NCBI GenBank assembly: GCA_947184155.2
Contig: CAMXCT020006758.1
Location: forward strand, 235,001-299,000
Reading direction: 5' to 3'
DNA: 64,000 bases
Source: Cladocopium goreaui
Lineage: Eukaryota; Sar; Dinophyceae; Suessiales; Symbiodiniaceae
Below the pieces are notes generated by a model that worked only from the letters and a program-made list of their open reading frames with translations, had not been told where the DNA came from and made no database searches. Below, piece by piece: positions 11,279-58,419 of this stretch; position 1 is the first letter of the stretch, and each line of letters opens with the position of its first letter. The translations under genes were made by a program, and so were the position numbers.

Positions 11279-14200
11279 TCAGTGATGCTGGGTGCTGATG
11301 CCAACATCACTGATGTGACGCAAAAGCGTCTCTGTTGCAACGTACTTGGTGAAGATGTCGGCCGGGTTGTTGATCGTGTTGATCTTGACAATCCTCACAA
11401 GGTCGTGTGCGACCAATTGTTGTATGAAAAGGTGTTTGAGCTCGATATGTTTGGCTTTCTTTGATGCTCTGATTCTTGTTGCCATGCTCTTTCCGCTTGA
11501 TGAGTCGGTATATATGCGGATGTTGATCTTCTTCATGTTGAGAGCTTCCTTCAGGAAATTGCTGATGTGGAGTGCTTCTGTTGCTCCTGTGTTGATCGCA
11601 TAGAGTTCTGCTTCCGCGCTGCTCAGCGCAATTGTTGCCTGTGTTCTGCTTCCGTAGTGGATTGTTGCGCCGAAGACTTTGATTAGAAATCCTGTTGTTG
11701 ACTTCCTCGTTGTTACGCATCCTGCCCAGTCGCTGTCGACAAAGACTTGGATGTCTGGTACTGCTTCAGCTGTTGGTGTCTTGGTTGTAGGTCTCACGTA
11801 TTGTTTGTAGTGTTGTGTTCCCTTGATGTACCTGAGCAAGTGCTTCAATTTCTGCTGGTCTGCTGTTGTTGGCTGTGTCAATGCTCTTGCAAGCTCTTTT
11901 GTTGCAAAGCCAATGTCTGGCCTTGTGTAGGTCATCCATTGTAGCTTGCCAACCATTCTTCGGTAGGCTGCGTGTTCTTCTTTGTTGAGTTCTTGTTCCA
12001 TCTCTGATGTTGCTTTCAGAGTGTTGTTGCCTGGTGCTGGTGCTGGGTTGCAGTTGAGCATGCTGGCTTCTTCCAGCATCTGCGTTGTGTAGCTGTCTAC
12101 TAAGCTGATCTCGTAGTAGTCACCTTTGTTGCAGATGTTTCTGCCCAAAAAGCTGATGGTGTTGCCGACTGTGAGTTCTCCTGTTGGACGGAGTAGGAGG
12201 TGTTGCTGGATGCTCTTGAACAGCTTGTTGACCGTCTCCTGTTGTCCAATGAAGAGCAAGTCGTCGACGTAGCATAGTATGTATGCATCTCCCTGTGGTG
12301 TTGCGTAGACGTTGGGCTCGCTGACAAGTCGTCGTGGTCCAAGTTGTTGCATCACCTCTGCCAGGTGATTTTGCCATGCTTTTGGGCTGCTGCGTAAGCC
12401 ATAGATGGCTTTGTTGAGCCGCCAGACGATCTGGTCGAAGGCGTTGTAGAACTCTGCTGGTGGATACATGAAAAGATCTGCTGTTGCTGCTGCTGCATGT
12501 AGAAAGGCTGTTGAAATGTCTCCTGTGAGACAAATCCAGTTGTTGCAAAGTGCCAAGACGAGTAGCATCCTCAGAACGCAGAAGATTGGTGTTGACGCGA
12601 AGATGTCGTCGTTGTCATTGATCTCCTCTGTGTAGCCCTTTGCTACAATTCGTGCTCGAACTGTGTTGCCTTTCTGTCGAAGAACCCATCTTGACTTGAT
12701 AATCTTCTTGCGTTGCTCTGGTGTGAGTTGACTTATGTGTACTTCTGTGTACACTCCTTGTTCCTTCATTGACTTGATTTCTTGCTTCATTCCTTCAGTT
12801 GTTTGTTCTTTGTCTAAACCTTCGGTGTTGCTCACCCAAGGTTCCAGGAGAATCTTTTCTGCTTTGATCTCCTGTTCATCCTCATTTGATGTTGCTTCTA
12901 TCTTCTGTCCTTTCTTTGTTGTGACTGTGACTTGTGATATCCTCATCCTTGTTGTTGGTGGCTCCTGAGCTGTCTCAGGTCTGCTTGCTGCTGTGGCTCT
13001 CTCTGTTGTTCTTGCTTGCTTTGGTGAGCTACCTTGTGTGATCTCATCTGCTACTTCTCTTTTGCCTTGTGTCGGCAATGGAAGTGGCTGCCTTGCTGGC
13101 TGAGTTGCTGGCGCTGTTGCCATTGGAAGGTCTGTAAGTGCTGGTGGTGTTGTGGCGTGTGGTTGTTCCATGGCTTGTGGCTGTGGACTCCGCTGAGTCT
13201 GTGTACTTGCTGTTGTCTGCTGCTTTGCAGCAGCGGGTTGTGGTAGTACCACAATGCTTGGTGTTGTTGGTGGTATCATGGCTGGTGAAGAGTTGATGAT
13301 GTCCATCAACTGCTTGTTGTACTTGTCTGGCTTTATTTGTCTTCTTATGGTCCTTGCTCTGACCACTTTGTTGCTGATGCCAAGTATGTTCTCGTTTGTT
13401 GAGTTGTCCTTACCCAACCAGATGGCTGGATAGAACCTTGCTTCCATCTTTGGCATATGTTTTGCTGTTGGTAGCATGTAAAGAACTGTTTCACCAAATT
13501 CACATATTGGTGTTTTGTGTTCTTTGCCCCATCGTCTGTAGTAGCTTGTGTTTCCATCTGAGTGGGTGGAATACCTGTTGAGCAGGTATGCTGCGTGTTT
13601 GACAAGCCACGGCATGATGGGATGCTTGCTGTTGAGCTTGATGCCATAGTTGGTCTCCAATTGGAGTTTGAGAGCTCTGACTTGGCCCATCAATGTTCTG
13701 TGGAAACATTCAACGCTTCCTTGTGCTTGTGATGTGTAGGCTGGTGCTTGCCTGACTGCTATGTTGCTACCCATGGCTGTTGCCACCATCTTGAGCAAGG
13801 TGATGATAAAGTCTTCCTGGTCTGATTGAAGAACGGTGTTGTTGAGAATTGCATGTGTTCTGCCACATTCCATGAGGAATTGTTGAAGGCAAACTGACAG
13901 GTATTGTACGTGTTGTGTCTTGTCCTCAAGTTGGACTGCCATACACATGCCTGTTTCAACGTCCACTGCTGTAAGGACTGATGTTGTTTGCTTTTCTCCT
14001 AGTGCTTTGTAGTACATCAGATCCACTTGGATCACTGGTGTTTTGCTTGTTTGCTTTGGATGGTTGTCCTGTCTTCCTTTGCTTTGTACACATGTTGGAC
14101 ACCAGCTTCTGTAGGGAAGGTGTGTGAGCTCGTGTTCTCTTCTTTCTTGTTCTGTTGGTTGTTGTGGTGTTGGCACTCCTTTTGCTCTCTTGGCTTCTTG

Positions 14201-16771
14201 TTGCTCCTCTGGCTCATCTGTGATGAACTCATCTTTGTATGATGCGTGTTCTTCAAAGTTTGTTGAGCCTGTCCACTCTATGTCGAGTGTTGCTTTCCTC
14301 TTTGTCGTCCAGTCATCATCTATTCTATATCCTCTGTTGCCACTTGTTGGTTTCACCATTGTTTGTCTCCACGTTGTCAGTCTTGTCACGTCTGGTCCAT
14401 CATCTGTTTGTTGTGGAATGTACATGTCCCTTCTTGGTTGGACATGCACACGTTTCCAATATGGACCTTCTTTGATCCAATAGTCCTGTGTTGGACTGAC
14501 TTCCTTTGGATGTGGAATTGCTGTTTGATATGGCTGCGTTGTGGTCATTGCTTGGTCTGTTGGCCTTACCTCTGTGAGAGGCTTCTTCACATTGTGTCGG
14601 TACATTGGTGCTTGTGGTTGGTCAACTGTGGTTTGTTGAGATGGTGTCGCTGGCTCTTTAGCTGGTGGAAGTGCTGGTTGTGGTGGTATGTTGCCTGGAA
14701 GTACTGTTCCACGTTTCACTTTGAACCATGTTTCTCCTGTCCAGTTGTTTCCTTGTATGATCCTCTTCTGTTGCTTCTTGTCGAGGTCTTGGTATGCTTC
14801 TTCCATGACCTCTGTGTTGTTGTTTGGTCTTTGTATGATTGTTCTTCTGTAGTTCTCCAACCTTTCTGTTGGAACTGGACATCTGCTGTCTGGCATGAAC
14901 AATGCCTTGCGTGTTGTCCTGTGGACTCTTACCAAGAAACCTTGGCTGTTGAATGTCCATAGGTCATTCTTGTTGCGAAGGACTTCCATGCCTGTTGGAG
15001 TCAGTGTGACCGGTGCTATTCTTGCTGTTGTTCCTTCTGCTGTCTGGTTGACTTCAAGCCTCAAGTTGGCTGGAAGTGTGATCAGCACAACTGGCAAGAA
15101 GTATAGGCCTTCTCGTTGTTTGAGTGCTGAGTTGAATCCCTTGGTGTGTGTGATTGTTGGTGTTTCGTTAAGTTGTGTGTTGAACCCTTGTTCTGCCAGT
15201 CTTGTTACTGACATGATGGGTTGCGTCACATCACACACATAGAAGGGAACAACTATTGTTTGCTTGTTGGTGTTGTGCATGTACACCCATTTGTAGCCAT
15301 GCACTGGGATATCCTCATCTGTTGCTGTCCTCAACCTAGGTCCTTGCCCTTGTTGTAGTGGATACAGTGGTGTGTCTGGTGCAAACCATGTTGGACAAAC
15401 GTGTGTTGCTGCTCCACTGTCGATCATAACGTCCACCTCGTTGTCTCCTCTCTGCTGCTGCACTGCTTGAGCTGTGGTGGTTGCTTCATTGTGGGCACTT
15501 GCTGCCTGATGGCCCAGTGCTCCTACAAGTTGTATTGTTGGTGTCTGCGTGTTGGTTTGTGGCGCTGGCAAAGCTAGTTGTTGTTGTTGTACTGGCTGGA
15601 TGTTGTAGTTGCCTGACTGGTCGTTGCTGTACCAGTAGTTGTCGTACCCACTGTTTGGGTCATACCATTGGGATGTTCCATCCTGGTTCTGTTCCTGTGG
15701 TGTCTCTGCAATGTTGTACACCGCTGTTCGGCAATCCTTTGCCAAGTGGCCTTGTTGACCACATCTGTAGCATATTGCTGTTGGATTCTTTCCTTTTCCT
15801 TTGTTGTGAGCTCCTTTCGACTTTCCTTTGTTTCCTTTCTCTACTCCTTTTGGCTGATACCATTGCTGTTGTTTTCCTTTGCCCTTTCCTTTGTTGTAAC
15901 TGCCGTAGCCTCCGTAGCCTTTTCCTTGGTGGTATCCTTTTCCTTTGTGACCTCCTTTGTTGAATCCTTTTCCTTTGCTCTTTCCTTTTCCTTTTCCTTT
16001 GCCTTTATATGTTGCTCCAATATCCATTGGAGCTGGGCCTCCTCCTAAGTTGCTGCTGACTGCTGAAGACGACTGTTCTTGAAGTCTTGAGAACGCAGTT
16101 GTGGTTCTGTAGTACTCCATGATTGTTGTCCTCACTTCAGCATATGTTGGTGTTGCGCTGGCATTGAGGTGTAAGTGTTGTTGGAGTGGTCCTGTTGTCT
16201 CATTCATGAGAACTGCTATCTTCACTTGGTCTGGTAGTTGTGCATTGTTGTCACGCTCGTAACGTGCAAGCTCAAATTCCCATGTTGAGAAGGACTCCTC
16301 AAAGTTGTTGATGTCGAAAGTTGGCTTGAGTAGTTTTGTGAGGTAGCCTATGCTTCTTGTTCCAACAGGTATTGCAAACCTGTTGCACAGTTGCCTGTAG
16401 ACCTCTAGGCCCATTGCGTCTTGGTATTGTCTGCAAACTGTTGCTGCTGAACCGCTGGTGATGTTGATAAGGATGTATTTGAGGTTGTTGCAAAGTTGTG
16501 TCCATTTCTCTCCTTGCTCTATTGTTGAGGCTGCACCGAGCAGCTCTGCATCTGTGAGCACTGTTGTTGCTCTTTCTGCTCTTGAAAGCAGTTGTGGAAA
16601 GATGTTGTCCTGTAGGCCCATGTATGCTGAGAATTTGTACTTCCATTCCTCGAATGTTGCGTAGTTTCCATCGTATGTTGGAGGTTTCAACTTCAGCCTG
16701 TGTGTTGATCCTAGGGCTTCTGCTTGTGTTTCTCCTGCTGTTGGCGATCCTATCTCATGTGCCGTCGCCAT
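11279..16771 (-). CDS. Gag-Pol polyprotein of a Ty1/copia retrotransposon
   Basis: A single frame of 1830 residues from ATG at 16771. The frame is open further upstream but without ATG. Numbering from that ATG: Gag about 1-330 with a very basic Gly-Lys tract (about 255-330); a CCHC knuckle CYRCGQQGHLAKDC (334-347); aspartic protease DSGAATHV (451); a compact integrase zinc site HELTHLPYRSWCPTC (880-894); integrase catalytic D917, D984 and E1021; reverse transcriptase with D1418 (LTGDISTAFLH) and YVDD (1501-1504); and RNase H with D1679, an acidic pair in SSAEAEL (about 1720) and D1756. Integrase precedes reverse transcriptase, which defines the copia order. No frameshift separates gag from pol, so the product should be one polyprotein cut by its own protease. 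All catalytic residues looked for are present, so it appears functional. Confidence 0.95.
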   Translation of the reverse strand: MATAHEIGSPTAGETQAEALGSTHRLKLKPPTYDGNYATFEEWKYKFSAYMGLQDNIFPQLLSRAERATTVLTDAELLGAASTIEQGEKWTQLCNNLKYILINITSGSAATVCRQYQDAMGLEVYRQLCNRFAIPVGTRSIGYLTKLLKPTFDINNFEESFSTWEFELARYERDNNAQLPDQVKIAVLMNETTGPLQQHLHLNASATPTYAEVRTTIMEYYRTTTAFSRLQEQSSSAVSSNLGGGPAPMDIGATYKGKGKGKGKSKGKGFNKGGHKGKGYHQGKGYGGYGSYNKGKGKGKQQQWYQPKGVEKGNKGKSKGAHNKGKGKNPTAICYRCGQQGHLAKDCRTAVYNIAETPQEQNQDGTSQWYDPNSGYDNYWYSNDQSGNYNIQPVQQQQLALPAPQTNTQTPTIQLVGALGHQAASAHNEATTTAQAVQQQRGDNEVDVMIDSGAATHVCPTWFAPDTPLYPLQQGQGPRLRTATDEDIPVHGYKWVYMHNTNKQTIVVPFYVCDVTQPIMSVTRLAEQGFNTQLNETPTITHTKGFNSALKQREGLYFLPVVLITLPANLRLEVNQTAEGTTARIAPVTLTPTGMEVLRNKNDLWTFNSQGFLVRVHRTTRKALFMPDSRCPVPTERLENYRRTIIQRPNNNTEVMEEAYQDLDKKQQKRIIQGNNWTGETWFKVKRGTVLPGNIPPQPALPPAKEPATPSQQTTVDQPQAPMYRHNVKKPLTEVRPTDQAMTTTQPYQTAIPHPKEVSPTQDYWIKEGPYWKRVHVQPRRDMYIPQQTDDGPDVTRLTTWRQTMVKPTSGNRGYRIDDDWTTKRKATLDIEWTGSTNFEEHASYKDEFITDEPEEQQEAKRAKGVPTPQQPTEQERREHELTHLPYRSWCPTCVQSKGRQDNHPKQTSKTPVIQVDLMYYKALGEKQTTSVLTAVDVETGMCMAVQLEDKTQHVQYLSVCLQQFLMECGRTHAILNNTVLQSDQEDFIITLLKMVATAMGSNIAVRQAPAYTSQAQGSVECFHRTLMGQVRALKLQLETNYGIKLNSKHPIMPWLVKHAAYLLNRYSTHSDGNTSYYRRWGKEHKTPICEFGETVLYMLPTAKHMPKMEARFYPAIWLGKDNSTNENILGISNKVVRARTIRRQIKPDKYNKQLMDIINSSPAMIPPTTPSIVVLPQPAAAKQQTTASTQTQRSPQPQAMEQPHATTPPALTDLPMATAPATQPARQPLPLPTQGKREVADEITQGSSPKQARTTERATAASRPETAQEPPTTRMRISQVTVTTKKGQKIEATSNEDEQEIKAEKILLEPWVSNTEGLDKEQTTEGMKQEIKSMKEQGVYTEVHISQLTPEQRKKIIKSRWVLRQKGNTVRARIVAKGYTEEINDNDDIFASTPIFCVLRMLLVLALCNNWICLTGDISTAFLHAAAATADLFMYPPAEFYNAFDQIVWRLNKAIYGLRSSPKAWQNHLAEVMQQLGPRRLVSEPNVYATPQGDAYILCYVDDLLFIGQQETVNKLFKSIQQHLLLRPTGELTVGNTISFLGRNICNKGDYYEISLVDSYTTQMLEEASMLNCNPAPAPGNNTLKATSEMEQELNKEEHAAYRRMVGKLQWMTYTRPDIGFATKELARALTQPTTADQQKLKHLLRYIKGTQHYKQYVRPTTKTPTAEAVPDIQVFVDSDWAGCVTTRKSTTGFLIKVFGATIHYGSRTQATIALSSAEAELYAINTGATEALHISNFLKEALNMKKINIRIYTDSSSGKSMATRIRASKKAKHIELKHLFIQQLVAHDLVRIVKINTINNPADIFTKYVATETLLRHISDVGISTQHH

Positions 16772-16774
16772 CCT

Positions 16775-16950
16775 TGTTGTTGAGGGTCCCCCACACTGTA
16801 TAGTTGGGATCAAGCCCTCTTCCTGCGCACCTTGTTGTTGAGTTTGTTTCTTTACCTTGTCGTTGCAGTGGTGGTGTTGGGCTGCTACCCTTTGTTGCTC
16901 CAGCTGTTGTTGAGAGTCCCCCAGTGTTCTGGGATCAAGCCCTCTGCCTG
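16775..16950 (-). repeat. duplicated leader segment of the copia element
   Basis: Two imperfect copies of about 45-50 bp lie 130 bp apart at 16775-16825 and 16905-16950. Both contain GGGATCAAGCCCTCT and a GTTGTTGAG-GTCCCCC block. The copy nearer pol directly precedes the Gag ATG. Confidence 0.75.
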
Positions 16951-16974
16951 TTGGAGCTCACCTGGATGCTTCCA

Positions 16975-26319: not shown

Positions 26320-29300
26320 TATGTGGAGGGGACCTTTATGTATAGAATGACGGGGTTCTGGATCTCGCTTCTGAGGACCTCAATTACAATTCCATAAGAA
26401 AGGCTAGTCTAAAATCCGATCTCCATATTCATCTCCTTTTCAATGTTTCTATAAATTCATGGCTGCATTTCCTTTGGCTTTCCTTCAAGTTTGCTGTCTT
26501 ATTTATCCTGGCCTTTGTAGATTTCCTTTCCGAAATCTAAATTCCTAATGAAATTGTCTTTTTCCGGTTCCTTCTGAAAGTTGCTTGCAAATATCAATTT
26601 CCTTTTAATTTCCTTTTAAAGCTATTTCAAATGTTCGTTGGAATAATTCTATTTGGACACGGTTCAAAAACGAAAGCGGAATTATAAAGCATAGGGCGGG
26701 CCAAGGCATTTTGTCTCGCATGCAATGTAAAGTGTATGCTTTTCATTGCTTTTCTGCATGTGCCAATGTCTTCCCACCTCTTGGGATTCTCTACGCCTTT
26801 CCTCGCCGCTTCTCCACAGCTTCTTGCCCTCCCCCTCTCCACCTACAAAGGAGAAAGACGAAGAAAGGGGGTGAAGCAGGTGGAAAGTTGTGGGTGGAAG
26901 GGTAGGTGGAAGGGGTGGATATGGTTGGAGAGGTTGGGTGAAGATGATGCTAGGGTGATGCGAGGGTGGAGCGAGGTTGGAGCGATGGTGGAATGAAGGG
27001 TGAGGTGTGGAGAAGGTGATCAAAAATTGATACCAAGTACAAGGATACATCTACTGTATTTATTCACATCCTTTGCGCGATCCACTCCTTGGGATTCTCT
27101 CCTTCCCTTTTCACTTTCCCGCGGCTTTTTCTCTTCTCTCCCCCTCTCCACCCTTCTACATGTCCATCTCCGCTCAATACCCTCATTCCTCTTTCCGAAA
27201 AGAATCTTCGGGGCAGAAAGTGTGGAGAGGAGTGAGCAGGGATGGAAAGCGGAGAGAATTAAATGAAGTTGGGGTGATGGGCGGGGTCACGATGAAGAGT
27301 TGGGCGGTGGGCGTAGCGAAAGGCAGATGGATGGAGAAAAAGAACATGTACATTAGATAGACGCAAGTAATTCATCCTGACTGCTTTCTTATCTAGCCGT
27401 TTCTTTTTTCAAAACTACTTTAAAGTTCAATTGTGATTGCCTTTTCCAGCTCCATCTTATATTGGCTTGCATAGATGAAAAAAATGTATGTCTACTTTCT
27501 TTTTTGGACATACTTTTCAATGTGCCTTGGAACAAATCTCTTAAGACATGATTCAAAAGCAGCAGTGCAAATACAAAGCATAGGGTGGACTAAGGCATTT
27601 TGCCTCTCAGGCAATGTAAAAGTGCATGCTTTTCATTGCTTTTTCTGTGGGGGGAGCGAGGGCGGAGCGGGGGTGGAGTGAAGGGTGGAGTGAAGGGTGG
27701 AGTGAAGGGTGGAGAAGGTCGCCAAAAATTGATACAAACGATGCATATTTATTTCGTTTTTTGCTTGATCCACTGCTTGTGCTTTTTCCCTTGCCTTTTC
27801 ACTTCTCCGCAAACTTTTTCTCTTCCATCCCCCTCTCCACCCTTCTACATGTCCATCTCTGCCTCCACTCAACACCTTCATTCCTGTTCTGAAGATAAGG
27901 TGCTAGGGGACAAAGGGGTGAAGAGGAGTGAGCATGCATGGAAAGCGGAGAGGGTTAAATGAAATTGAGGTGATGGGCAGGGTCGCGATGAAGGGTTGGG
28001 CGGTGGGGTGTGGTGAAAGGCAAATGGGTGGAGAGAAACAAAATACAACACATACATGAACAATTCATCCGGACTGCTCTTTTATCTATTTAGCAATTTC
28101 TTTCAAAACCTATTTGAATTTCAGTTGAAATTGTCTTGTCCAGCTCCATGTTCAATTTGCTGTCAAAGAACAGAACAAAATTGTCTTCTAGTTTCTCTTT
28201 AAATTTTCAATTTTCGTTGGAATAATTCTCTTTAGACATGATCCAAAATTGGCGGCCACATTTTGAAAGGCAGAGGGTGGGGCCATGGTTTTTGCGCAGG
28301 TAATGTAATGTGGCAAAGAACTGCGCAGGCGATGTTACATGGCAAAGAACCTCATTTGGGTTTTTTCTATACAATCCAATTATAATGATTTTGGTGCTGG
28401 TTTCTTGTTGGGCTTACCACATTAAAGTGTGTGCTTTTCATTGCTTTTCTTTATGTGCCAATGCTTGTCTCATTGATACCTGTCCACTTGTGCTTTTCCT
28501 CTCTTTATCTGCGCTTTGCCTCGCCGCTTTTCCACAGCTTCTTGCCTTCCCCCCTCTCCACCTACAAAGAAGAAAGAAGCTGAAAATGAGGTGAAAAGGC
28601 CTAAACATGGGTAGGTGGTAAAGTGTGAATGGAAAGGGGGCGGATTGCGAGTGCAGGGGTTAGGAGATTGGTAGGAAGCGTGATGCCATGGTCCGGCCAG
28701 GATGGAGTGAGGGTGGAGCGAGGGTGAAGCAAAGATCGAGCAAGGGCAGCAAGGGCTCAATGAAGGGTGGAGAAGGTTGCACAAACTTGAAAACGATGCA
28801 TATTTATTTACATTGCTTGCGTTCTTCACCGTTTTTTTGAATTCGCTACTCCTTGCCTTTTTCACTTCTCCACGGCTGCTTCTCTTCTCTCCTTCCGTTC
28901 CTGTTCAAGGAGAATGTTAGGGGCTGAAAGGATGGAGGAGTGAAAAGAGATGTAAAAACGGCGAGGGTTAAGTGAAGTTGGGGTGATGGACAGGGTTATA
29001 ATGAAGGGTCGAGCAGAGAGATGAGGCGAAAGGAGAGGAAAATCTTCTTGCAAGTGCCAGTCAAACTTTTATCATTGTTCTGAGTTTCTATTTACCTTTG
29101 GAATATCTAGCCTAAAGATCCGATATCCTCATTCATAGCTTTCCTTCAAGTGTACTGTCATATCTTCATTCTGGCTGTGCCCTTATCTAGCCTTTGTACA
29201 TGTCCTTTTCAAAAGTAGCTTAAATTTCAATTGAAATGATCTTTTCCGGTTCCTTCTGAAATTTGCTTGCACAGATCAATTTCCCTTTAAATTTCTCTTT

Positions 29301-30137: not shown

Positions 30138-30143
30138 TCTTAT
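30138..30143. repeat. 6-bp target site duplication TCTTAT (left)
   Basis: TCTTAT is repeated at 34094-34099. The paralogous unoccupied site at 27455-27460 has a single TCTTAT followed by ATTGGCTTGC, matching ATTTGCTTGC after the right copy. Confidence 0.85.
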
Positions 30144-30177
30144 CAGATTGAACGCGCAATGGCGGAAATTTTCACCC

Positions 30178-30442
30178 CAGCCACTCAGCCACTCTGAGTG
30201 GCTGAGTGGCTGCTCCAGCCACTCTGGCAGAGTGGCTGAGTGGCTGCTCCAGCCACTCTGGCTGAGTGGCTGAGTGGCTGCTCCAGCCACTGCGTGGCTG
30301 ATGGGCTGAGTGGCTGGGGGCTGGCTGCTCCAGCCACTCTGGCAGAGTGGCTGCTCCAGCTACTCTGGCAGAGTGGCTGAGTGGCTGAGTGGCTGCTCCA
30401 GCCACTCTGGCAGAGCGGCTGAGTGGCTGAGTGGCTGCGGCA
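30178..30442. repeat. left subterminal repeats of the DNA element
   Basis: Tandem units of the form GTGGCTGAGTGGCTGCTCCA followed by GCCACTCTGGCAGAGTGGCT. Each unit contains its own inverted repeat (AGCCACTCTG / CAGAGTGGCT) and so can fold into hairpins. They match the right-end repeats in inverted orientation. Confidence 0.85.
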
Positions 30443-30449
30443 GAGTCAT

Positions 30450-32219
30450 CAGCCAATGAATTTGATAAAGTTTTTAAACATTTCAATGTCCAAGCAAGGT
30501 TATATGATAGTGACAGCAACTTGATTTACAAACATAACCCTGTAAACTTTAACTGCCATAGCTACATAACTTTCAACGTATTGATTAAGAACAGCCACAT
30601 ATACACTTTGAACTATAACCTGAAATTACTTAAAAGGAAAGATCGTGTTGATGAACTCTACAAGTTCAGGATTGGAAACAACTATTACATCAACCACAGA
30701 GAAGAACCTCTTAAATACAAAATGATTGATGGTATCGATGGTGTGATGAGTTTAAAGGATGAAGAGGAATACAAATTAGTTTTAAAAAGGCAATGATTTG
30801 AACAAAGCAATGTATGACATGAAAAGAGCAGGATATGAACCACAGGTTAGGCACACAGCAGGTAGGGCAGTAGAAATCAAGTCTGATTTAACACACAAGA
30901 TAGGCAAGAAACAGAAAACGGTAACCTACAGCATTGTAACACAGCACCGTGACCATGATAGAATCAATGATGATATCTTGGTGGAAACAGAGGAATAATA
31001 CAACAAAGTCAGCGCGACAATGTTCAAGTTTCATGAGTCAATTTTCAGTGAAAATCATAAGTCATACTATAACGAAACTGACCTTAAAGCATTGGATGAA
31101 TGCAGAACCATTGTTCCTAATGGAAGGTTGTTAAAGGCAAAAGACTATGATAGCAAGGGCTATGAACCTGTCCTTGCCCCTGAAGATATGTGTAGCATCG
31201 ACACACGGAAAGTTTACTCATACCAAGCAACAACGATTACACACATTCCAGTGTTCAACGATTTTGATGTATGGAAGCCATACTCCAAAAAAAAATGACT
31301 TTAACAAATTCAAAAACTACACCTTGTTCATAGTGAGGGCATGTCAGGGCAACATTTGTTTTTTTAACAAAAATAACAATCTGGTGTATGGGAAGCACCT
31401 GAAGGAATTGATTAAGAGAGGGATGGCAATGAAGATACTATTTTACAAAGTACCTTCATACATTCACAGAGTGAAGTATAAGAAAGCGGTTGAAGATTTA
31501 TATAAAACAGTGATTAGTGATGACAAGTTTGAGAATCAAACGTCTTGAAAACTCTTGCTAATGTAGCCTTTGGTTTGCTTGAGAAGTCTTACAATAGAAA
31601 AACGGTCAGTAGGATTTTTGATTAAGGAGGCATTACAGCAGCAGAAAAAATATGATGGGAGGATTTACGCAATGAACGAAGAAAAGTATGAGGAATATTT
31701 TAGATGGAGAGAATTAGAAGAAGATTGGACTATCGAAGTTGATGAGAACAACAACCCTTTTTTTGGACATGTGAATGGCGGTGCGTGTTTTACAGATTTT
31801 GAGTATAACGTCGAGGATGGCAAAACCTACTACTGTGAAAATGATTCATTCAACCAAAAGATAGAGAAGAAAAGCGAGACCGCCAAATATCATATAGTCA
31901 GTGTCAGTGACCAAAGGCAGTTGATGAACGGATTTAGGTATATCAAAGAACTACTGTTACAAAATCATAACTTTCATATGTATGATGCGTATGAAAAATT
32001 GAAGGAGGCAAACATCAATGTTTACGCTGTAAAGACTGATGCCTTTCACATAGCAAAGAGGGACTTAAAGAAAGCTAAAAAGATATTGAATTTTCATAAT
32101 GACATAGGAGGCTGAAGAGTGGAAGATAAGAAAGTCGTTCCTGTTCCCGAAGTCTATGGATGGAAAAACAATGAGATTCCAAAAATACCGATTTACAAAA
32201 GCGAAAGGATTGGTTCAAG
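30450..32219 (+). pseudogene. divergent family B-like DNA polymerase, broken
   Basis: A plus-strand protein-like reading persists for about 1.77 kb but changes frame near 30785, 31290 (A9 run), 31540 and 31613 (T5 run). It has in-frame stops at 30996-30998 and 32113-32115 and ends at a stop at 32219-32221. Recognisable pieces: an N-terminal segment with HSYITFNVLIKNSHIYTLN; KTLANVAFGLLEKSYN near 31548, laid out like polymerase B motif B (K...N..xG); and, near 32032, NVYAVKTDAFHI, laid out like motif C with a TD core, preceded by a GFRYIKELLLQNHNFHMYDA helix. I see no DxxSLYP motif A, so the assignment depends on spacing and local patterns and is moderate. The 5' end runs straight into the subterminal repeats, suggesting truncation. 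No repaired protein is given. Confidence 0.55.
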
Positions 32220-32811
32220 ATGAATGGGACACAGAAGCAATTTAGAAAAACAGCAATAAGGAAGAAAAGAGTCATGATTAGGGCAAAATTTGCAGGAAGT
32301 GGTAAGAGTTTCTTTGGAAAACATTTCAACGACCTAACTTATAATACACTTTTTGTTGTTCCTCACAATGTGCAAAAGCAAGATGTTCCATGCGATGCAG
32401 TCACCCGAAATACATTCTTCAGTGTTCCTGTGTGTAAGGGGGAAAGCAGGCTACCAAAGTATGATTAGAACGGTTATGATGTATTTTTTTTGATGAAATC
32501 TATATGTCAAGTCCTTATATCTTGAATAAGATAAGAGTCTTCTGCAATGAAAACCCTCATTTGATTGTAATGGGTGCAGGTGATGTCAAACAACTTCCAA
32601 GCATAGAGGCATAGAGCCCTGCACCAACAACCAAAATGGAGAGGAGTATGTTGACAATTGCATTGACATAATTTTCAAATACAATATCTTTTTGCAGATA
32701 CGCAAAAGAGTATGAGGTAAAGATACAGAAGAGGGAAAGGAATAGAACAAAAATAAATGAAATCTATGATGATTTTTGGCAAAAAGATTTGGATGATTTT
32801 TTATGATATAA
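32220..32811 (+). pseudogene. superfamily 1 helicase relic
   Basis: Directly after the polymerase-like segment the reading continues in another frame. It has a Walker A loop AKFAGSGKSFF (32283-32313), then, after a stop at 32466-32468 and a slip in a T8 run near 32485, a Walker B DEIYM (32492-32506) and the motif III signature GDVKQLPS (32579-32602) that marks superfamily 1 helicases. A final segment, IIFKYNIFLQIRKRV, lies near 32665-32713. Motifs V and VI are not seen. A polymerase next to a helicase on one strand suggests one replication polyprotein or two adjacent replication genes. It is broken by stops and frameshifts. Confidence 0.65.
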
Positions 32812-33222
32812 GGAAATACACTTAAAAGGATAATACCTTATAATAGTATGGAGAGTAGAAAGTGCACAAAGTGTAAGAAAAATAAAAATGGTGACGAGTT
32901 CAATGGAATGTATAGAATGTGTATTGAATGCTTGGACAAACAAAAGGATAGTAACACTGTATATTATAATCAAAAGGAAGTATTTTGAGACATTTGCCAG
33001 CAGAATGTGAAACAATGCAGGTTGTCCAAACATCTTAAACTCGACAGGGATATCAACAAGGAAAAACTCAAAAAGGAAGAAGAGAAAAAACAAAAAGAGA
33101 TGGAGGAATACTTAAAAGATGATGAAGCCAGAATTGCGAAATTGAAACAAATCTGGAAAACCAATACACCAAAGAACTTTAAAAGACTTAAACCCCATAA
33201 TTTTTCATATCAAAATATATGA
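32812..33222 (+). pseudogene. zinc-ribbon plus coiled-coil segment, one in-frame stop
   Basis: One frame runs from after a TAA (32809-32811) to the stop at 33222, broken only by a TGA at 32986-32988. From ATG 32848 it has CTKCKKNKNGDEF and RMCIECLDKQ, a four-cysteine (CxxC...CxxC) ribbon. After the stop come ICQQNVKQCRLSKHL, with further Cys/His, and a strongly charged segment KEEEKKQKEMEEYLKDDEAR predicted to be coiled coil. The frame upstream of the ATG (GNTLKRIIPYNS) is also protein-like, so this may be the C-terminal part of the helicase polypeptide rather than its own gene. A DNA-binding role is inferred. Confidence 0.5.
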
Positions 33223-33905
33223 CAAATATGATACGAACATAGGCATGTTAGAGATGGATGATTTAGATTTATGATATTTTTTATGGCATTGTATTATGAT
33301 AACATATTATGATGAAATTTATGATGACATATTATGATGAAATATTATGAAATTTTATGATTTGAATTTATGTGATGATGGATGATGATGAAATGATGTG
33401 GGATGATGATGTATGAAATGATGTGGTTTTATTTTGTGTTGATACTGTGATGAAATGATATGAAATGTTGTGAAAATGAAATGTGGTAAATGATGACATG
33501 ATGGAGGTGGATGGTATGAACTTAGGTGTGTTTGTGTCTAGCTATATGTATAATATAATATAATATAATATATATATATAATCTCTTTAATAGCATACAT
33601 ATATGAAAACATTGGGACTATAACCAAATGTCCCATTCCTTTCACCATGATGATCCGCAGAGACCCACAGAGCGAACCCCTTTAACACAAATAGCTAATG
33701 ACTTCTTTCTCACAACCCTTTAACACAGATGTTTGCATAAAATTCCATTCAATCCATAAGAATATATGCCCCGGTGCCTACAAGATAAAGGAAGAAACCC
33801 TAAATTAGCATAAAACCTCACTTGAAAAACTACCCAGACCTAAGGAAAATTAGGTCTGGGTAATACTGCTTACACTCCATTGGCTAAGCTGCACTAGCTA
33901 TTCAC
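33223..33905. other. AT-rich non-coding 3' part of the DNA element
   Basis: GATGATG and ATGAAATG low-complexity sequence (33300-33500) and a TA run (33549-33575), then about 300 bases of unique sequence ending in the hairpin at 33831-33862. No open frame of note. Confidence 0.5.
33831..33862. terminator. perfect 13-bp hairpin downstream of the element's genes
   Basis: TACCCAGACCTAA (33831-33843) and its exact reverse complement (33850-33862) are separated by GGAAAA. It is the strongest stem-loop outside the repeat ends and lies 3' of the coding segments. It could mark a transcript end or processing site, as hairpins do in some large DNA viruses of protists. The function is inferred. Confidence 0.45.
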
Positions 33906-34070
33906 CCACTGAGACATTCTGCCACAGTGGCTTGGTGCAGCCACTCAGCCACTCAGCCACGCAGACGCTCTGGTAAGAGTGGCTGGTCCAGCCGCTCTGC
34001 CAGAGTGGCTGGTCCAGCCGCTCTGCCAGAGTGGCTGAGTGGCTGAGTGGCTGAGTGGCTGCTTCGATTT
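33905..34070. repeat. right subterminal repeats of the DNA element
   Basis: Units such as GTCCAGCCGCTCTGCCAGAG and GTGGCTGAGTGGCTGAGTGG match the left-end repeats in inverted orientation. Read inward from the right end, the order CAGCCACTCAGCCACTC is the same as at the left end. Confidence 0.85.
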
Positions 34071-34093
34071 CGCAAGCCGTGTTGCACATCCAC

Positions 34094-34099
34094 TCTTAT
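34094..34099. repeat. 6-bp target site duplication TCTTAT (right)
   Basis: Second copy of the TCTTAT at 30138-30143. The host repeat resumes immediately with ATTTGCTTGC. Confidence 0.85.
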
Positions 34100-34566: not shown

Positions 34567-37500
34567 CTTCCCGAAAATAAAGAAAATCAAAAAAATAGAT
34601 CTTTATTGTCTTTCTTTTCTTTATTTACTTTTCCAGGTGTCCAACAGGATGAAAATTATAGAAACTAAAGATTTATTTTCTTTATTTTCTTTTTGGGGCT
34701 CCAGAAAAATAAAGAAAATGAATATGTTTTTCTTTATTTTCTTTATTTTCTTTTTAAGGCTCCAGGAAAATAAAGAAAATAAATCTTTATTTTCTTTGTT
34801 TTCTTTTTGAGGCCTCAGGAAAATAAAGAAAATAAAGAAACAAAATCTTTATTTTCTATAGATTCCATCCTGCTGGACACCTGGCAAAGTAAATAAAGAA
34901 AATCAAAAAAATAGAGAAAATAAAGAAAATAAAGATTTATTGTCTTTGTTTTCTTTATTTTCTTTTTAAGGCTCCAGGAAAATACAGAAAATAAAGAAAA
35001 TAAATCTTTATTTTCTATAGATTCCATCCTGCTGGACACCTGCAAAAGTAAATAAAGAAAATAAAGAAAATAAAGAAAATAAATCTTGATTTTCTTTATT
35101 TTCTTTATTTTCTTTTTGAGGCTCCAGGAAAATAAAGAAAATAAAGAAACATATCTTTATTTTCTATAGATTCCATCCTGCTGGACACCTGGAAAAGTAA
35201 ATAAAGAAAATAAAGAAAATAAAGAAAATATATCTTTATTTTCTTTGTCTTTTTGAGGCTTCTGGAAAATAAAGAAAATAAATCTTTATTTTCTATAGAT
35301 TCCATCCTGCTGGACACCTGGAAAAGTAAATAAAGAAAATAAAGAAAATAAAGAAAAAAAATCTTTATGTTCTTTATATTCTTTGTTGAGGCTTCAGGAA
35401 AATAAAGAAAATAAAGAAAATAAATATTTATTTTCTATAGATTCCATCCTGCTGGACACCTGGAAAAGTAAATAAAGAAAATAAAGAAAATAAAGAAAAT
35501 AAATCTTTATTTTCTTTATTTTCTTTATTTTCTTTTTGAGGCTCCAGGAAAATAAAGAAAATAATAAAAAAAAATCTTTATTTTCTATAGATTCCATCCT
35601 GCTGGACACCTGGAAAAGTAAATAAAGAAAATAAAGAAAATAAAGAAAAAAAATCTTTATTTTCTGTATTTTCTTTAGTTTCTTTCTGAGGCTCCAGGAA
35701 AATAAAGAAAATAAATCTTTATTTTCTTTATTTTCTTTTTGAGGCTTCAGGAAAATAAAGAAAATAAAGGAAAGAAATCTTTATTTTCTTTATTTTCTTT
35801 CTTTTTGAGGCTTCAGGAAAATAAAGAAAATAAAGAAAATAAATCTTTATTTTCTTTATTTTCTTTATTTACTTTTCCAGGTGTCCAGCAGGATGGAATC
35901 TATAGAAAATAAAGATTTATTGTCTTTATTTTCTTTATTTTCTTTTTGAGGCTCCAGGAAAATAAAGAAAATAAAGAAAATAAATCTTTATTTTCTTTAT
36001 TTTCTCTATTTTCTTTTTGAGGCTTCAGGAAAATAGAGAAAATAAAGAAAATAAATCTTTATTTTCTTTATTTTCTTTATTTACTTTTGAGGCTCCAGGA
36101 AAATAAAGAAAATAAAGGAAATAAATCTTTATTTTCTATAGATTCCATCGTGCTGGACACCTGGAAAAGTAAATAAAGAAAATAAAGAAAATAAAGAAAA
36201 TAAAGAAAATAAAGATTTAATTTCTTTATTTTCTTTATTTTCTTTTTGAGGCTCCAGGAAAATAAAGAAAATAAAGAAAATAAATCTTTATTTTCTTTAT
36301 TTTCTTTTTGAGGCTCCAGGAAAATAAAGAAAATAAAGAAAATAAATCTTTATTTTCTTTATATTCTTTATTTTTTTTGAGGCTTCAGGAAAATAAATAA
36401 GATAAAGAAAATAAATCTTTATTTTCTTTATTTTCTTTATTTTCTTTATTTACTTTATTTACTTTTCCAGGTGTCCAGAAGGATGGAATCTATAGAAAAT
36501 AAAGATTTATTTTCTTTATTTTCCTTATTTTCTTTTTAAGGCTCCAGGAAAATAAAGAAAATAAAGAAAATAAATCTTTATTTTCTATAGATTCCATCGT
36601 GCTGGACACCTGGAAAAGTAAATAAAGAAAATAAAGAAAATAAAGAAAATAAAGAAAATAAAGATTTAATTTCTTTATTTTCTTTATTTTCTTTTTGAGA
36701 CTCCAGGAAAATAAAGAAAATAAAGAAAATAAATCTGTATTTTCTTTATTTTTTTTATTTTCTTTTTGAGGCTCCAGGAAAATAAAGAAAATAAAGAAAA
36801 TAAATCTTTATTTTCTTTATTTTCTTTATTTTCTTTTTGAGGCTCCAGGAAAATAGAGAAAATAAAGAAAATAAATCTTTATTTTCTTTATTTTCTTTAT
36901 TTACTTTTGAGGCTCCAGGAAAATAAAGAAAATAAAGGAAATAAATCTTTATTTTCTATAGATTCCATCGTGCTGGACAACTGGAAAAGTAAATAAAGAA
37001 AATAAAGAAAATAAAGATTTAATTTCTTTATTTTCTTTATTTTCTTTTTGAGACACCAGGAAAATAAAGAAAATAAAGAAAATAAATCTTTATTTTCTTT
37101 ATTTTCTTTATTTACTTTTCCAGGTGTCCAGAAGGATGGAATCTATAGAAAATAAAGAGTTATTTTCTTTATTTTCTTTTTGAGGCTCCAGGAAAATAAA
37201 GAAAATAAAGGAAATAAATCTTTATTTTCTATAGATTCCATCGTGCTGGACAACTGGAAAAGTAAATAAAGAAAATAAAGAAAATAAAGATTTAATTTCT
37301 TTATTTTCTTTATTTTCTTTTTGAGACTCCAGGAAAATAAAGAAAATGAAGAAAATAAATCTTTATTTTCTTTATTTTCTTTTTGAGGCTCCAGGAAAAT
37401 AAAGAAAATAAAGGAAATAAATCTTTATTTTCTTTATTTTCTTTTTGAGGCTCCAGGAAAATAAAGAAAATAAAGGAAATAAATTCTTATTTTCTATAGA

Positions 37501-38510
37501 TTCCATCGTGCTGGACACCTGGAAAAGTAAATAAAGAAAATAAAGAAAATAAAGATTTAATTTCTTTATGTTCTTTATTTTCTTTTTGAGACTCCAGGAA
37601 AATAAAGAAAATAAAGAAAATAAATCTTTATTTTCTTTATTTTCTTTCTTTTCTTTTTGAGGCTCCAGGAAAATAAAGAAAATAAAGAAAATAAATCTTC
37701 ATTTTCTTTATTTTCTTTATTTTCTTTATTTTCTTTATTTTCTTTTTGAGGTTTCAGGAAAATAAAGAAAATAAAGAAAATAAATCTTTATTTTCTTTAT
37801 TTACTTTTGCAGGTGCCCAGAAGGATGGAATCTATAGAAAATAAAGATTCACTTCTTTATTTTCTTTATTTTCTTTTTAAGGCTCCAGGAAAATAAAGAA
37901 AATAAAGAAAATAAATCTTTATTTTCTTTATTTTCTTTTTGAGGCTTCAGGAAATTAAAGAAAATAAAGAAAATAAATCTTTATTTTCTTTATTTTCTTT
38001 ATTTTCTTTTTGAGGCTCCAGGAAAATAAAGAAAATAAAGAAAATAGATCTTTATTTTCTTTAATTTCTTTATTTTCTTTTTGAGGCTCCAGGAAAATAA
38101 CGAAAATAAAGAAAATAAATCTTTATTTTCTATAGATTCCATCGTGCTGGACACCTGGAAAAGTAAATAAAGAAAATAAATAAAGAAAATAAAGAAAATA
38201 AAGATTTAATTTCTTTATTTTCTTTATTTTCTTTTTGGGGCTCCAGGAAAATAAAGAAAATAAAGAAAATAAATCTTTATTTTCTTTATTTTCTTTATTT
38301 TCTTTTTGAGGCTCCAGGAAAATAAAGAAAATAAAGAAAATACATCTTTATTTTCTTTATTTTCTTTATTTTCTTTTTGAGGCTCCAGGAAAATAAAGAA
38401 AATAAAGAAAATAAATCTTTATTTTCTTTATTTTCTTTTTGAGGCTTCAGGACAATAAAGAAAATAAAGAAAATAAATATTTATTTTATATATTTTCTTG
38501 TACTTTAAAA
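34567..38510. repeat. strand-switching AAATAAAG/CTTTATTT satellite
   Basis: About 3.9 kb built from AAAATAAAGAAAATAAAG tracts, each followed by the complementary CTTTATTTTCTTTATTTTC tract, joined by GAGGCTCCAGG spacers. A second spacer, ATTCCATCCTGCTGGACACC, recurs about a dozen times. It appears inverted (GGTGTCCAGCAGGATGGAAT type) near 34635, 35877, 36466, 37121 and 37810. Every unit can form long hairpins. There is no coding potential. Confidence 0.95.
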
Positions 38511-41113: not shown

Positions 41114-41876
41114 CTTGTAGGTTGAGAATGTTAGGGCGCCGTTTGTGAGTTTTGGCGGCTGGAAGACAGCTCAGACAGCTAGTTTTCTTGTAGGTTCAGA
41201 AAGCAACGTTAGGCAGTGGGGTCCGTGGCCCGCAGGCCTGGTCCGTCCTTCAGGGCCCTGCTGTTTGGTGTGGCGAAGGCGCCGTTTGTGAGCCTTGGCG
41301 GCTGGAAGACAGCTCAGAGAGCTAGTTTTCTTGTAGGTTCAGAAAGCAACGTTAGGCAGTGGGGGCCGTGGCCCGCAGGCCCGGTCCATCCTTCAGGGCC
41401 CTGCTGTTTTGCTGTTGTGAGGGCGCCGTTTGTGAGCCTTGTTGGCGGCTGGAAGACAGCTAGTTTTCTTGTAGGTCAGTGGGGGCCGTTGCCCGCAGGC
41501 CCGGTCGGTCCTTCAGGGCCCTGCTGTTTCGCTGTGGCGAGGGCTCTGTTTGTGAGCTTCCTTGGCGGCTGGAAGACAGCTAGTTTTCTTGAAGGTTCGG
41601 AAAGCAACGTTACGCACTGGGGGCCGTTGCTCGCAGGCCCAGTCCGTCCTTCAGGGCCCTGCTGTTTCGCTGTGGCGAGGGCGCCGTTTGTGACGGCTGG
41701 AAGACAGCTACCACAGGCTCGGTCCGTCCCTCAGGGATCTGCTGTTTCGCTGTGGCGAGGGCGCCGCTTGTGAGCCTTGTTGGCGGCTGGAAGACAGCTA
41801 GTTTTCGTGTAGGTTCAGAAAGCAACGTTAGGCAGTGGGGGCCGTTGCCCGCAGGCCCGGTCCGTCCTTCAGGGCC
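41114..41876 (+). repeat. 763-bp perfect duplication, copy 1
   Basis: Every segment compared by eye is identical to 42388-43150, offset by 1274 bp. It comprises several array units. Confidence 0.85.
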
Positions 41877-42387
41877 CTGCTGTTTCGCTGTGGCGAGGGC
41901 GCCGTTTGTGAGCCTTGTTGTCGGCTGGAAGACAGCTAGTTTTCTTGTAGGTTCAGAAAGCAACGTTAGGCACTGGGGGCCGTTGCCCGCAGGCCCGGTC
42001 CGTCCTTCCGGGCCCTGCTGTTTTCGCTGCCGCGCCTCGGTCCTCCCTCAGGCGCTTGCTGTTTCGTGGGGCGATGGGCGCCGTGTGTGAGGCTTGTTGG
42101 CGCTGGAAGACAGCTAGTTTTCGTGTAGGTTTCAGAAAGCAAACGTTAGGGCAGTGGTGCCGTGGCCCGCTCGGCCCTGTCCGTCACTTCAGGCCCTGCT
42201 GTTTCGTGTGGCGAGGGGGCGCCGTTTGTGAGCCTTGGTTTGTCGGCTGAAGACAGCTAGTTTGTCCTGGTAGGTTGTAGAAAGCAACTTTAGTCACTGG
42301 GGTCCGTTGCCCACCGCAGGCCCCAGTCCGTCCTTTCGGGCCCTGCTTGTTTTCGCTGTGGCGAGGCCTGTTTGTGAGCTTCCTTGG

Positions 42388-43150
42388 CTTGTAGGTTGAG
42401 AATGTTAGGGCGCCGTTTGTGAGTTTTGGCGGCTGGAAGACAGCTCAGACAGCTAGTTTTCTTGTAGGTTCAGAAAGCAACGTTAGGCAGTGGGGTCCGT
42501 GGCCCGCAGGCCTGGTCCGTCCTTCAGGGCCCTGCTGTTTGGTGTGGCGAAGGCGCCGTTTGTGAGCCTTGGCGGCTGGAAGACAGCTCAGAGAGCTAGT
42601 TTTCTTGTAGGTTCAGAAAGCAACGTTAGGCAGTGGGGGCCGTGGCCCGCAGGCCCGGTCCATCCTTCAGGGCCCTGCTGTTTTGCTGTTGTGAGGGCGC
42701 CGTTTGTGAGCCTTGTTGGCGGCTGGAAGACAGCTAGTTTTCTTGTAGGTCAGTGGGGGCCGTTGCCCGCAGGCCCGGTCGGTCCTTCAGGGCCCTGCTG
42801 TTTCGCTGTGGCGAGGGCTCTGTTTGTGAGCTTCCTTGGCGGCTGGAAGACAGCTAGTTTTCTTGAAGGTTCGGAAAGCAACGTTACGCACTGGGGGCCG
42901 TTGCTCGCAGGCCCAGTCCGTCCTTCAGGGCCCTGCTGTTTCGCTGTGGCGAGGGCGCCGTTTGTGACGGCTGGAAGACAGCTACCACAGGCTCGGTCCG
43001 TCCCTCAGGGATCTGCTGTTTCGCTGTGGCGAGGGCGCCGCTTGTGAGCCTTGTTGGCGGCTGGAAGACAGCTAGTTTTCGTGTAGGTTCAGAAAGCAAC
43101 GTTAGGCAGTGGGGGCCGTTGCCCGCAGGCCCGGTCCGTCCTTCAGGGCC
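42388..43150 (+). repeat. 763-bp perfect duplication, copy 2
   Basis: Matches 41114-41876. The match ends within GGGCC at 43150, where unique sequence begins. The stretch just before this copy (about 42020-42387) is a noisy version of the array with many single-base insertions. Confidence 0.85.
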
Positions 43151-44600
43151 ATGTGTTTTTGAGCGACGTCACTTGGACGTTTCACTCGGAAATTGCTGGC
43201 CATGCCCAGATGCAGCCAGTTGGACAACCAGTTGGACAAGATGAAGTCCGGAAGTAAGCCCATAACATAACATCTCAGAACCGTGTCTTGTGGATTCAAC
43301 TGCTTTCCCACTACACATCACTGTGCATTCCACCTTGCATCTCAGAAACATCAGGCATAAACAATGCAGATTAATACAACATAACATTCATGCGATCTGA
43401 TAGCTTCCGATCCATCCATGTCGAAATGCCTTACGCAAAACGCCAAGTCGCCCGGGTCTCACGGAGCCGTGGCAGAACTCGATGGATCCAAGCAGCAGCC
43501 GTGATCAACCATGATTAAGCTGCACTCTATGAATCTGAATCTGAATCATACAAATAGTTCAGATGGAATGGGGATAAAAGGACTATATTCGAAAACGGAA
43601 CTTGATTGCAAGCCCAAAAAGATGGAAACAAATAAAACTTCAAACTCTTCACTGCTCGGAAGCTCAATCGACAACGGCCCAATAAGCCCATTCTCTTCGC
43701 CACAAAAATCTGCCCAGAGCAGCGACAAGCTACACAATCTTCAAAGTTTGTATGCAAAAGGGTTCGGAACAAGTACACGTCCCGTTCCAATAGACCCAAT
43801 AGAAGTATGTCTCTGAAGAATAAAAGCATTGATATTGTACAATACTGTAGGTTCATCGCCACACTGATACTTGCGCAATCCAGGCCGTAGGCTGCAATGC
43901 TCCTACCCATTTCGTTGCTCTTGTGACTCTGTGTTTTTCGTCCATGTCAACAACCTGAGTGGTCTTCTCTCCAAGAATTTGTTCCATCTCCTTTCTGCTA
44001 GCTCTAGACACCTGTGCTCCCGAGATTAATCCGGGTTTCAACTGCGAACGCTCAACTGGAGGACTCTCAAGTGCTGCTCCTGTCATGGAAGAGTGATCAC
44101 AATGAATGGATCAGCGAGGGGTTGCAATGAATTGGTCGATCGTCTTATGGGATCCTGAACCTCCAGATTGATGACATGCATTGCCGTGATTGCAATCACC
44201 ATCTGTTGAGATAGGCAACAGAATAGAATAATCTGATACAATACAAGTCAAAGTTAGCTACTTCACACTGAGTCAACGCATTGGCTTACAGAACAAATTC
44301 ACAGGACAAGCCTCGTATTTAATGGGACAATCTATGGTTGCCTGTAGACATTACCTTAAACCAAACCATTCCTTATGACCGTTTCTCCATGACCAACAAA
44401 TTCATTTCTCGGTTATTTTCATGACACCAGCCTGCCATGCTCAAAAAGCATATGACTCTAATCTGAAAGCCGGCCTCTTTCACCTTGCCCGGCTCTTGCA
44501 AGGAGGACCGCGACCTGCGCACACGGTTTGTTGCAATGACTCCGCTAAACAGCTACTGGAGTTACATTCACAATGACTGTGCTAGAAATGGAGCCACCAA
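43151..44600. other. unique DNA, no gene seen
   Basis: Short open frames occur on both strands, none with splice sites or recognisable domains. Confidence 0.4.
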
Positions 44601-58160: not shown

Positions 58161-58419
58161 GAGGAATTACCAGCAGCAAGGGCCAAGAAGTCATTACAAG
58201 CAGCAAGGGCAAGAAGCAAGAAAACATGAAAGAAGAAGCAAGAAGCAAGAAGCAATTACAGGCAACAAGCGGCAAGAAGCAAGAAACAAGAAGCCAGGAA
58301 GCAACAAGCGGCTGGAAGACAGGTCAGAGAAGCAAGAAACAAGAAGCCAGGAAGCAACAAGCGGCTGGAAGACAGGTCAGAGAGCTAGTTTTCTTGTCGA
58401 TTCAGAAAGCAACGGTAGG

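What the first reader, a model, noticed from the sequence alone, without database searches (positions are those of the whole stretch)
30138..34099. AT-rich DNA element with polymerase and helicase relics inserted in a host satellite
The sequence shows a 3950-bp block with a 6-bp TCTTAT duplication and inverted repeat-rich ends, and an unoccupied paralogous site at 27455-27460 that confirms the boundaries. Inside are helicase motifs (AGSGKS, DEIYM, GDVKQLPS) and a polymerase-B-like TD/K...N..xG layout. Established knowledge: 6-bp duplications and self-encoded PolB are traits of Polintons/Mavericks and related virus-like elements. Inference: this is a deleted member of such a lineage, or a new one that couples a divergent polymerase with a superfamily 1 helicase in one reading unit.
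Basis: partly seen in the sequence, partly recalled or inferred. Interest (0 to 1): 0.9.

Follow-up and report, generated by a model that had tools for sequence, protein, structure and literature searches.

The report
Truncated polinton-like mobile element copy
A 4-kb piece of DNA that jumped into a repeat carries the broken remains of a virus-type copying enzyme (polymerase and helicase in one chain), and related sequences suggest that this already broken short form spread using machinery supplied by intact relatives.

Summary
The insertion is real: 3,950 bp (30144-34093) flanked by TCTTAT, with an empty paralogous site at 27455-27460. Inside are collinear remains of one large replicase, aligning to residues 337-1093 of a 1,347-aa relative, plus a small zinc-finger-like gene and palindromic repeat arrays at both ends. 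Full-length relatives (median 1,315 aa) are common in sequence databases. An AlphaFold model of one (pLDDT 88) matches phi29-type polymerase and RecD2/Pif1-type SF1 helicase. This is the 'Tlr1-like helicase' (pPolB-S1H) known from polinton-like viruses and transpovirons, so the polymerase-helicase coupling is already published. New here: the window copy lacks the replicase's N-terminus, half of its vOTU-like protease, the helicase end and the HNH-like end; its N-terminal deletion junction recurs in 12 of 33 related proteins, and stop positions are shared. So a broken, MITE-like derivative seems to have been amplified, presumably in trans; the 6-bp duplication fits an rve-type integrase. Host (inferred): a dinoflagellate. 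Whether the parent is a virus or a capsid-free element is open. The host-genome search did not complete.

The parts
30138..30143 (.). left copy of target-site duplication TCTTAT
   Evidence: empty-site comparison with 27455-27460
34094..34099 (.). right copy of target-site duplication TCTTAT
   Evidence: empty-site comparison
27455..27460 (.). unoccupied paralogous target site
   Evidence: flank alignments 26503-27460 and 27455-27615, 87%
30144..34093 (+). whole inserted element, 3950 bp
30178..30437 (.). left array of palindromic units (GAGTGGCTG/CAGCCACTC)
   Evidence: DNA folding z -9.0 and -6.3 for its two halves
30449..30787 (+). second half of vOTU-like domain (His motif HIYTLN), fused to the array; first half with the Cys is missing
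   Evidence: tblastn of P0218 337-449
30786..31295 (+). pre-palm region and palm motif A (split by a stop)
   Evidence: tblastn; ORFs
31297..31622 (+). palm, through motif B (LKTLANVAFGLLEKSYN), two frames
31567..32112 (+). palm to motif C (VYAVKTDAF)
   Evidence: 144 homologs at E<=1 among 194 candidates, best 4.4e-103, 97% identity
32175..32465 (+). SF1 helicase, P-loop AGSGKS
   Evidence: 53% over 73 residues to P0223 909-980, E 4e-20
32480..32803 (+). SF1 helicase, DEIYM and GDVKQLPS, ending about residue 1093 of 1347 of the relative; later helicase motifs and HNH-like end absent
32848..33219 (+). small zinc-finger-like gene remnant (two CxxC pairs), broken by one stop
   Evidence: by eye; translation; only weak profile hits
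33937..34062 (.). right array of palindromic units
   Evidence: DNA folding of 33925-34062 z -13.6

Best explanation
The block is a dead, non-autonomous derivative of a mobile element whose full-length relatives encode a roughly 1,300-aa Tlr1-like replicase: vOTU-like protease, protein-primed-type PolB palm, SF1 helicase, HNH-like zinc end. A shortened version arose that kept the terminal palindromic arrays but lost the replicase's N-terminus and end, and it was then copied to other places although its gene was already broken. Shown: insertion with 6-bp duplication, collinear replicase remains, recurrence of the left deletion junction and of two stop positions in other database proteins. Inferred: replication and integration were supplied in trans by intact relatives; an rve-type integrase made the 6-bp duplication; the arrays are the recognition or origin sequences; the zinc-finger protein binds them; the host is a dinoflagellate.
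Against: The other copies are known only as short predicted proteins; their DNA, right ends and duplications were not seen. could only return proteins of about 67-212 aa, so intact close relatives could not appear. Cluster member counts may include the same locus in several assemblies. Four A/T runs of 7-9 lie in the element, so some frameshifts could be sequencing errors, although several breaks are plain stop codons. No integrase was found in the element. The right-hand deletion was not tested for recurrence. The modelled protein P0195 is the one of 110 that lacks the P-loop pattern.
Confidence: 0.75

Rival explanations
1. A full-length polinton-like virus inserted here and decayed locally; the deletions are private to this copy and nothing was mobilised in the short form.
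For: Stops and frameshifts throughout. PLVs of 15-30 kb are abundant in protists, Polarella among them (PMC10120064 passages).
Against: The left junction is seen in 12 of 33 related proteins, with differing arrays and some different leading sequence. Stop positions are shared.
Confidence: 0.13
2. The short form keeps a function: the shared stops split the gene into separate short proteins that are still made.
For: The same stop positions recur in several sequences.
Against: In the window further frameshifts and stops break the parts; the Cys half of the vOTU and both ends are gone; other sequences read through the same positions.
Confidence: 0.05
3. Assembly artefact: the block was joined wrongly into the repeat.
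For: The window has a 100-N gap (60033) and a 99.7% duplication at 41-43 kb, so the assembly may not be perfect.
Against: Exact 6-bp duplication with an 87% paralogous empty site; other sequences run from the same left end.
Confidence: 0.03

Closest known systems
Tlr1-like helicases (pPolB-S1H) of PLVs and transpovirons (PMC11071308; abstract and passages seen)
   Same: vOTU-like half, palm with altered first Asp of motif C (KTDA), SF1 helicase after the palm; the relatives end in an HNH-like module as some of these do.
   Different: The window copy lacks the N-terminal region, the Cys half of vOTU, the helicase end and the HNH-like end. In the relatives the HNH-like pattern is present in 107 of 110, which looks like a fixed domain, whereas the paper suggests intein-type invasion for such endonucleases.
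Polinton-like viruses in dinoflagellates and cryptophytes (PMC10120064, PMC12220804; passages)
   Same: 6-bp duplication typical of rve integrase; GC sometimes differing from the host; helicases fused to HNH units (N-terminally) are reported in Symbiodinium PLVs.
   Different: No capsid, ATPase or integrase hit in ten pieces of this 3.95-kb element.
OmPLV of Oxyrrhis marina (PMC12721341; parts 1-3 of 7 seen)
   Same: Dinoflagellate element with polymerase and SF1 helicase in one chain.
   Different: OmPLV has helicase before a complete exonuclease-containing polymerase and no target-site duplication; here the palm precedes the helicase and there is a 6-bp duplication.
Transpovirons (PMC11071308; passages)
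   Same: Small non-viral element carrying a pPolB-S1H replicase. The top viral model, H6WBE3, aligns over 1019 columns with the relative (E 1.8e-37; unnamed; recalled, uncertainly, as a transpoviron protein).
   Different: Transpovirons are linear plasmid-like molecules of mimivirids; this one is inserted in a repeat with a 6-bp duplication.

Membership tests
Tlr1-like helicase (pPolB-S1H) | PolB palm motifs A, B and C followed by SF1 helicase motifs in one chain | tested here: met
   Collinear but frame-split pieces in the window, one order, E 1e-50 and 7e-77; one chain in relatives, whose fold matches phi29 polymerase then Pif1/RecD2
Tlr1-like helicase (pPolB-S1H) | vOTU domain with catalytic Cys and His before the palm | tested here: not met
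   Window keeps the His half only, so it is a remnant, not a working member. In relatives Cys269 and His359 of P0178 are invariant in 22 of 22; in 110 full-length proteins the His pattern is found in 110 and the Cys pattern in 91. No fold test of this domain
Tlr1-like helicase (pPolB-S1H) | No exonuclease domain | tested here: inconclusive
   The model of P0195 aligns to phi29 from chain residue 6, so a remnant of the exonuclease fold may be present; exonuclease motifs were not searched
Tlr1-like helicase (pPolB-S1H) | Terminal-protein-like domain | not tested
   That region is missing in the window; the only model covering it in a relative was unusable (pLDDT 32.8)
Polinton-like virus / Polinton | Major capsid protein and packaging ATPase | tested here: not met
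   No Pfam or PHROGs hit for these in ten plus-strand pieces within 30431-33219; minus-strand ORFs were not searched
Polinton-like virus / Polinton | rve or tyrosine integrase gene | tested here: not met
   No hit in the same ten pieces; an rve gene lies near a related replicase in L001
Polinton-like virus / Polinton | 5-6 bp target-site duplication | tested here: met
   TCTTAT with empty site
Polinton-like virus / Polinton | Long terminal inverted repeats | tested here: inconclusive
   Palindromic arrays of the same unit at both ends, but the outermost 33-34 bp are not clearly inverted (6% of shuffles as good)
Transpoviron | Linear plasmid-like molecule replicating with a mimivirid | not testable with these tools
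   No replication data; insertion in a repeat observed here

The most novel reading that the evidence does not exclude
The autonomous parent is not a virus but a minimal self-synthesising transposon: just the 1,300-aa replicase (protease-polymerase-helicase-HNH) and a small zinc-finger gene between palindromic arrays, about 5 kb, capsid-free, common in dinoflagellates and environmental protists, with MITE-like broken derivatives amplified in trans. L002 (4,856 bp, both genes, strong hairpins at its 3' end) would be such a parent. The near-fixed HNH-like end could then be part of its own integration machinery.
Probability: 0.3. Interest if true: 0.75.

Novelty: new variant of a known kind. Interest (0 to 1): 0.5.

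Why it matters
Polintons and PLVs are now usually read as endogenous viruses. A short derivative that spread after its replicase was broken would show that their replication and integration systems work in trans and can create MITE-like families, as classical DNA transposons do. It also gives a clean marker (array-to-vOTU junction, 6-bp duplications) for dating and counting such events in very repeat-rich genomes. The HNH-like end in 107 of 110 full-length relatives is a testable contrast to the view that these endonucleases are passing invaders.

Tried and rejected
Host gene or bacterial helicase: rejected, because the matches form one collinear multi-domain chain. Profile searches of fragments: Pfam and PHROGs gave nothing convincing (best hint a Dda-like helicase family at E 0.13 and 0.29, collinear). 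No polymerase family in Pfam for 7 partial and 22 full-length relatives. PDB by sequence: none for the helicase piece, unrelated weak hits for the palm piece and alignment A2, and for A4 RecD, Dda-type and TraI helicases plus two P-loop proteins, no polymerase. So the polymerase identity rests on motifs and on the fold match. tblastn of P0080 against the phage collection: none. Viral-contig scans with window pieces: none; with alignments A2 and A4: one and the same contig; with a left-end DNA pattern: none. These scans use short exact patterns, so absence is weak. The single-sequence model of the L002 replicase was useless (pLDDT 32.8). A terminal inverted repeat outside the arrays is not supported. 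The tree has only 81 columns and 148 thinned rows and resolves little; the window sits in a 22-row set (96/89) in which the only full-length-search protein is P0172 (1068 aa). The 5' end of L002 does not fold better than shuffles (z -0.4) while its 3' end does (z -6.5). Literature: among the titles and abstract starts listed (20 of 77; 15 of 16; 15 of 30) I saw no report of an amplified short non-autonomous pPolB-S1H derivative. A passage of PMC4028283 mentions, and disputes, an older view of the Tlr element as a non-autonomous Polinton derivative. Passages of PMC11071213, PMC6431247 and PMC12480563 added nothing on this. Papers not in the open library were not seen.

Full report
Observation. 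The flanks of the block align to an unoccupied paralogue of the surrounding repeat and meet there with a 6-bp overlap, TCTTAT, so the element is 30144-34093 with TCTTAT on each side. Each end carries an array of palindromic GAGTGGCTG/CAGCCACTC units; these 9-mers occur nowhere else in the window, and the arrays fold as single strands far better than shuffles. The outermost 33-34 bp are not a clear inverted repeat.

Content. Reading-frame pieces of the element were searched apart. The 182-aa piece 31567-32112 has 144 relatives at E<=1 among 194 candidates, of which 120 were listed; the best are 97% identical, and representatives in that list stand for up to 55 clustered sequences. Full-length relatives followed from L002, a 4,856-bp contig binned in a Cyanobium MAG with an uninterrupted 1,294-aa protein. 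A search with residues 420-1294 of that protein gave 237 proteins at E<=1e-5 from 8,000 scored candidates; 110 of the 120 listed are at least 1,000 aa. tblastn of P0218 onto the element gives one collinear chain: residues 337-449, 449-733, 628-903, 905-916, 916-995 and 994-1093 of 1,347, E 1e-50 and 7e-77. Twenty shuffles of another reference, P0223, gave no hit at 1e-3. The remnant therefore lacks about the first 336 and the last 254 residues.

Amplification of the broken form. The 121-aa piece at 30431-30793 starts inside the left array and runs into the second half of the vOTU. Of its 33 database hits, 11 show the same array-to-vOTU junction in frame and P0251 shows it in a shifted frame; P0250 has its edge without array before it; P0247 is array-joined with a small loss; 19 start at or after the junction and say nothing; none shows the intact upstream half. 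Seven of the 12 carry only 7-8 junction residues; P0251, P0263, P0265, P0266 and P0270 carry array before them. P0251, P0266 and P0270 align into the element's outermost 35 bp, P0265 looks alike by eye, and P0263 and P0270 (P0251 briefly) begin with residues unlike the window's flank. Two stop positions of the window recur: 4 proteins end at one while P0272 reads on, and 7 of the 120 listed end at the other while P0008, P0012 and P0031 read on. Limits: only proteins of about 67-212 aa could be returned, no DNA of these copies was seen, and cluster sizes may count one locus in several assemblies. The simplest reading is that a shortened, broken copy was multiplied using proteins from intact relatives.

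Integration and partners. A 6-bp duplication is what rve integrases of this group make, and tyrosine recombinases do not (PMC12220804 passages). No integrase was found in the element. The one related viral contig found, L001/L004, has the replicase (split into three ORFs), a zinc-finger-like ORF and, at the core's edge, an rve gene (PF00665, E 9e-8), in a 6.2-kb core between 7-kb inverted arms; I did not search it for capsid genes. Small zinc-finger-like genes also lie beside the replicase in L002 and L003 and, as a remnant, in the window (32848-33219). That they bind the arrays is a guess.

Host. Two relatives come from EukProt with 'Skav' tags, recalled as Symbiodinium/Fugacium kawagutii; one of them, P0225, is the best match of at least 700 aa to the palm piece (62% over 79 residues). 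The window also has a large Ty1/copia-type ORF. A dinoflagellate is therefore likely but not shown; the genome search did not complete.

Parent. Whether the autonomous parent is a capsid-bearing virus or a two-gene, roughly 5-kb element is open. For the second: L002, and only one related contig found by two scans of the IMG/VR viral contigs. Against: L002 may simply be a contig fragment, L001 lies in the viral collection beside an rve gene, and PLVs with capsids are common in dinoflagellates such as Polarella (PMC10120064 passages).

Novelty. The replicase type and PLVs in dinoflagellates are known. I saw no report of an amplified, already broken short derivative in the listings of six literature searches, so I call it a new variant of a known kind.

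Noticed in passing
window 11282-16957 (-): Uninterrupted 1,892-aa Ty1/copia-type polyprotein (RVT_2 E 4.7e-31, zinc knuckle).
   Followed up: partly
window 34573-38499: AT-rich satellite of 9-bp units (GAAAATAAA/TCTTTATTT) that is also inverted on itself over kilobases, right next to the element.
   Followed up: no
window 41114-41885 and 42388-43158: 99.7% identical 770-bp duplication inside a GC-rich tandem array; related array at about 58361-60032, ending at a 100-N gap (60033). Recent copy or assembly duplication.
   Followed up: no
window 51137-54976: Nested tandem array with units of about 79, 229 and 459 bp.
   Followed up: no
L004 2430-9798 and 16001-23459: Viral-collection contig with 7-kb inverted arms (93-95%) around a core with the pPolB-S1H replicase and an rve integrase; arms hold an AAA-ATPase-like ORF and one that by eye resembles an adenine methyltransferase (not searched). 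Real long TIRs or an assembly palindrome.
   Followed up: partly
L002 821-4705 and relatives P0121-P0240: HNH-like zinc end present in 107 of 110 full-length relatives by pattern, though no Pfam HNH model hit the 22 scanned.
   Followed up: partly
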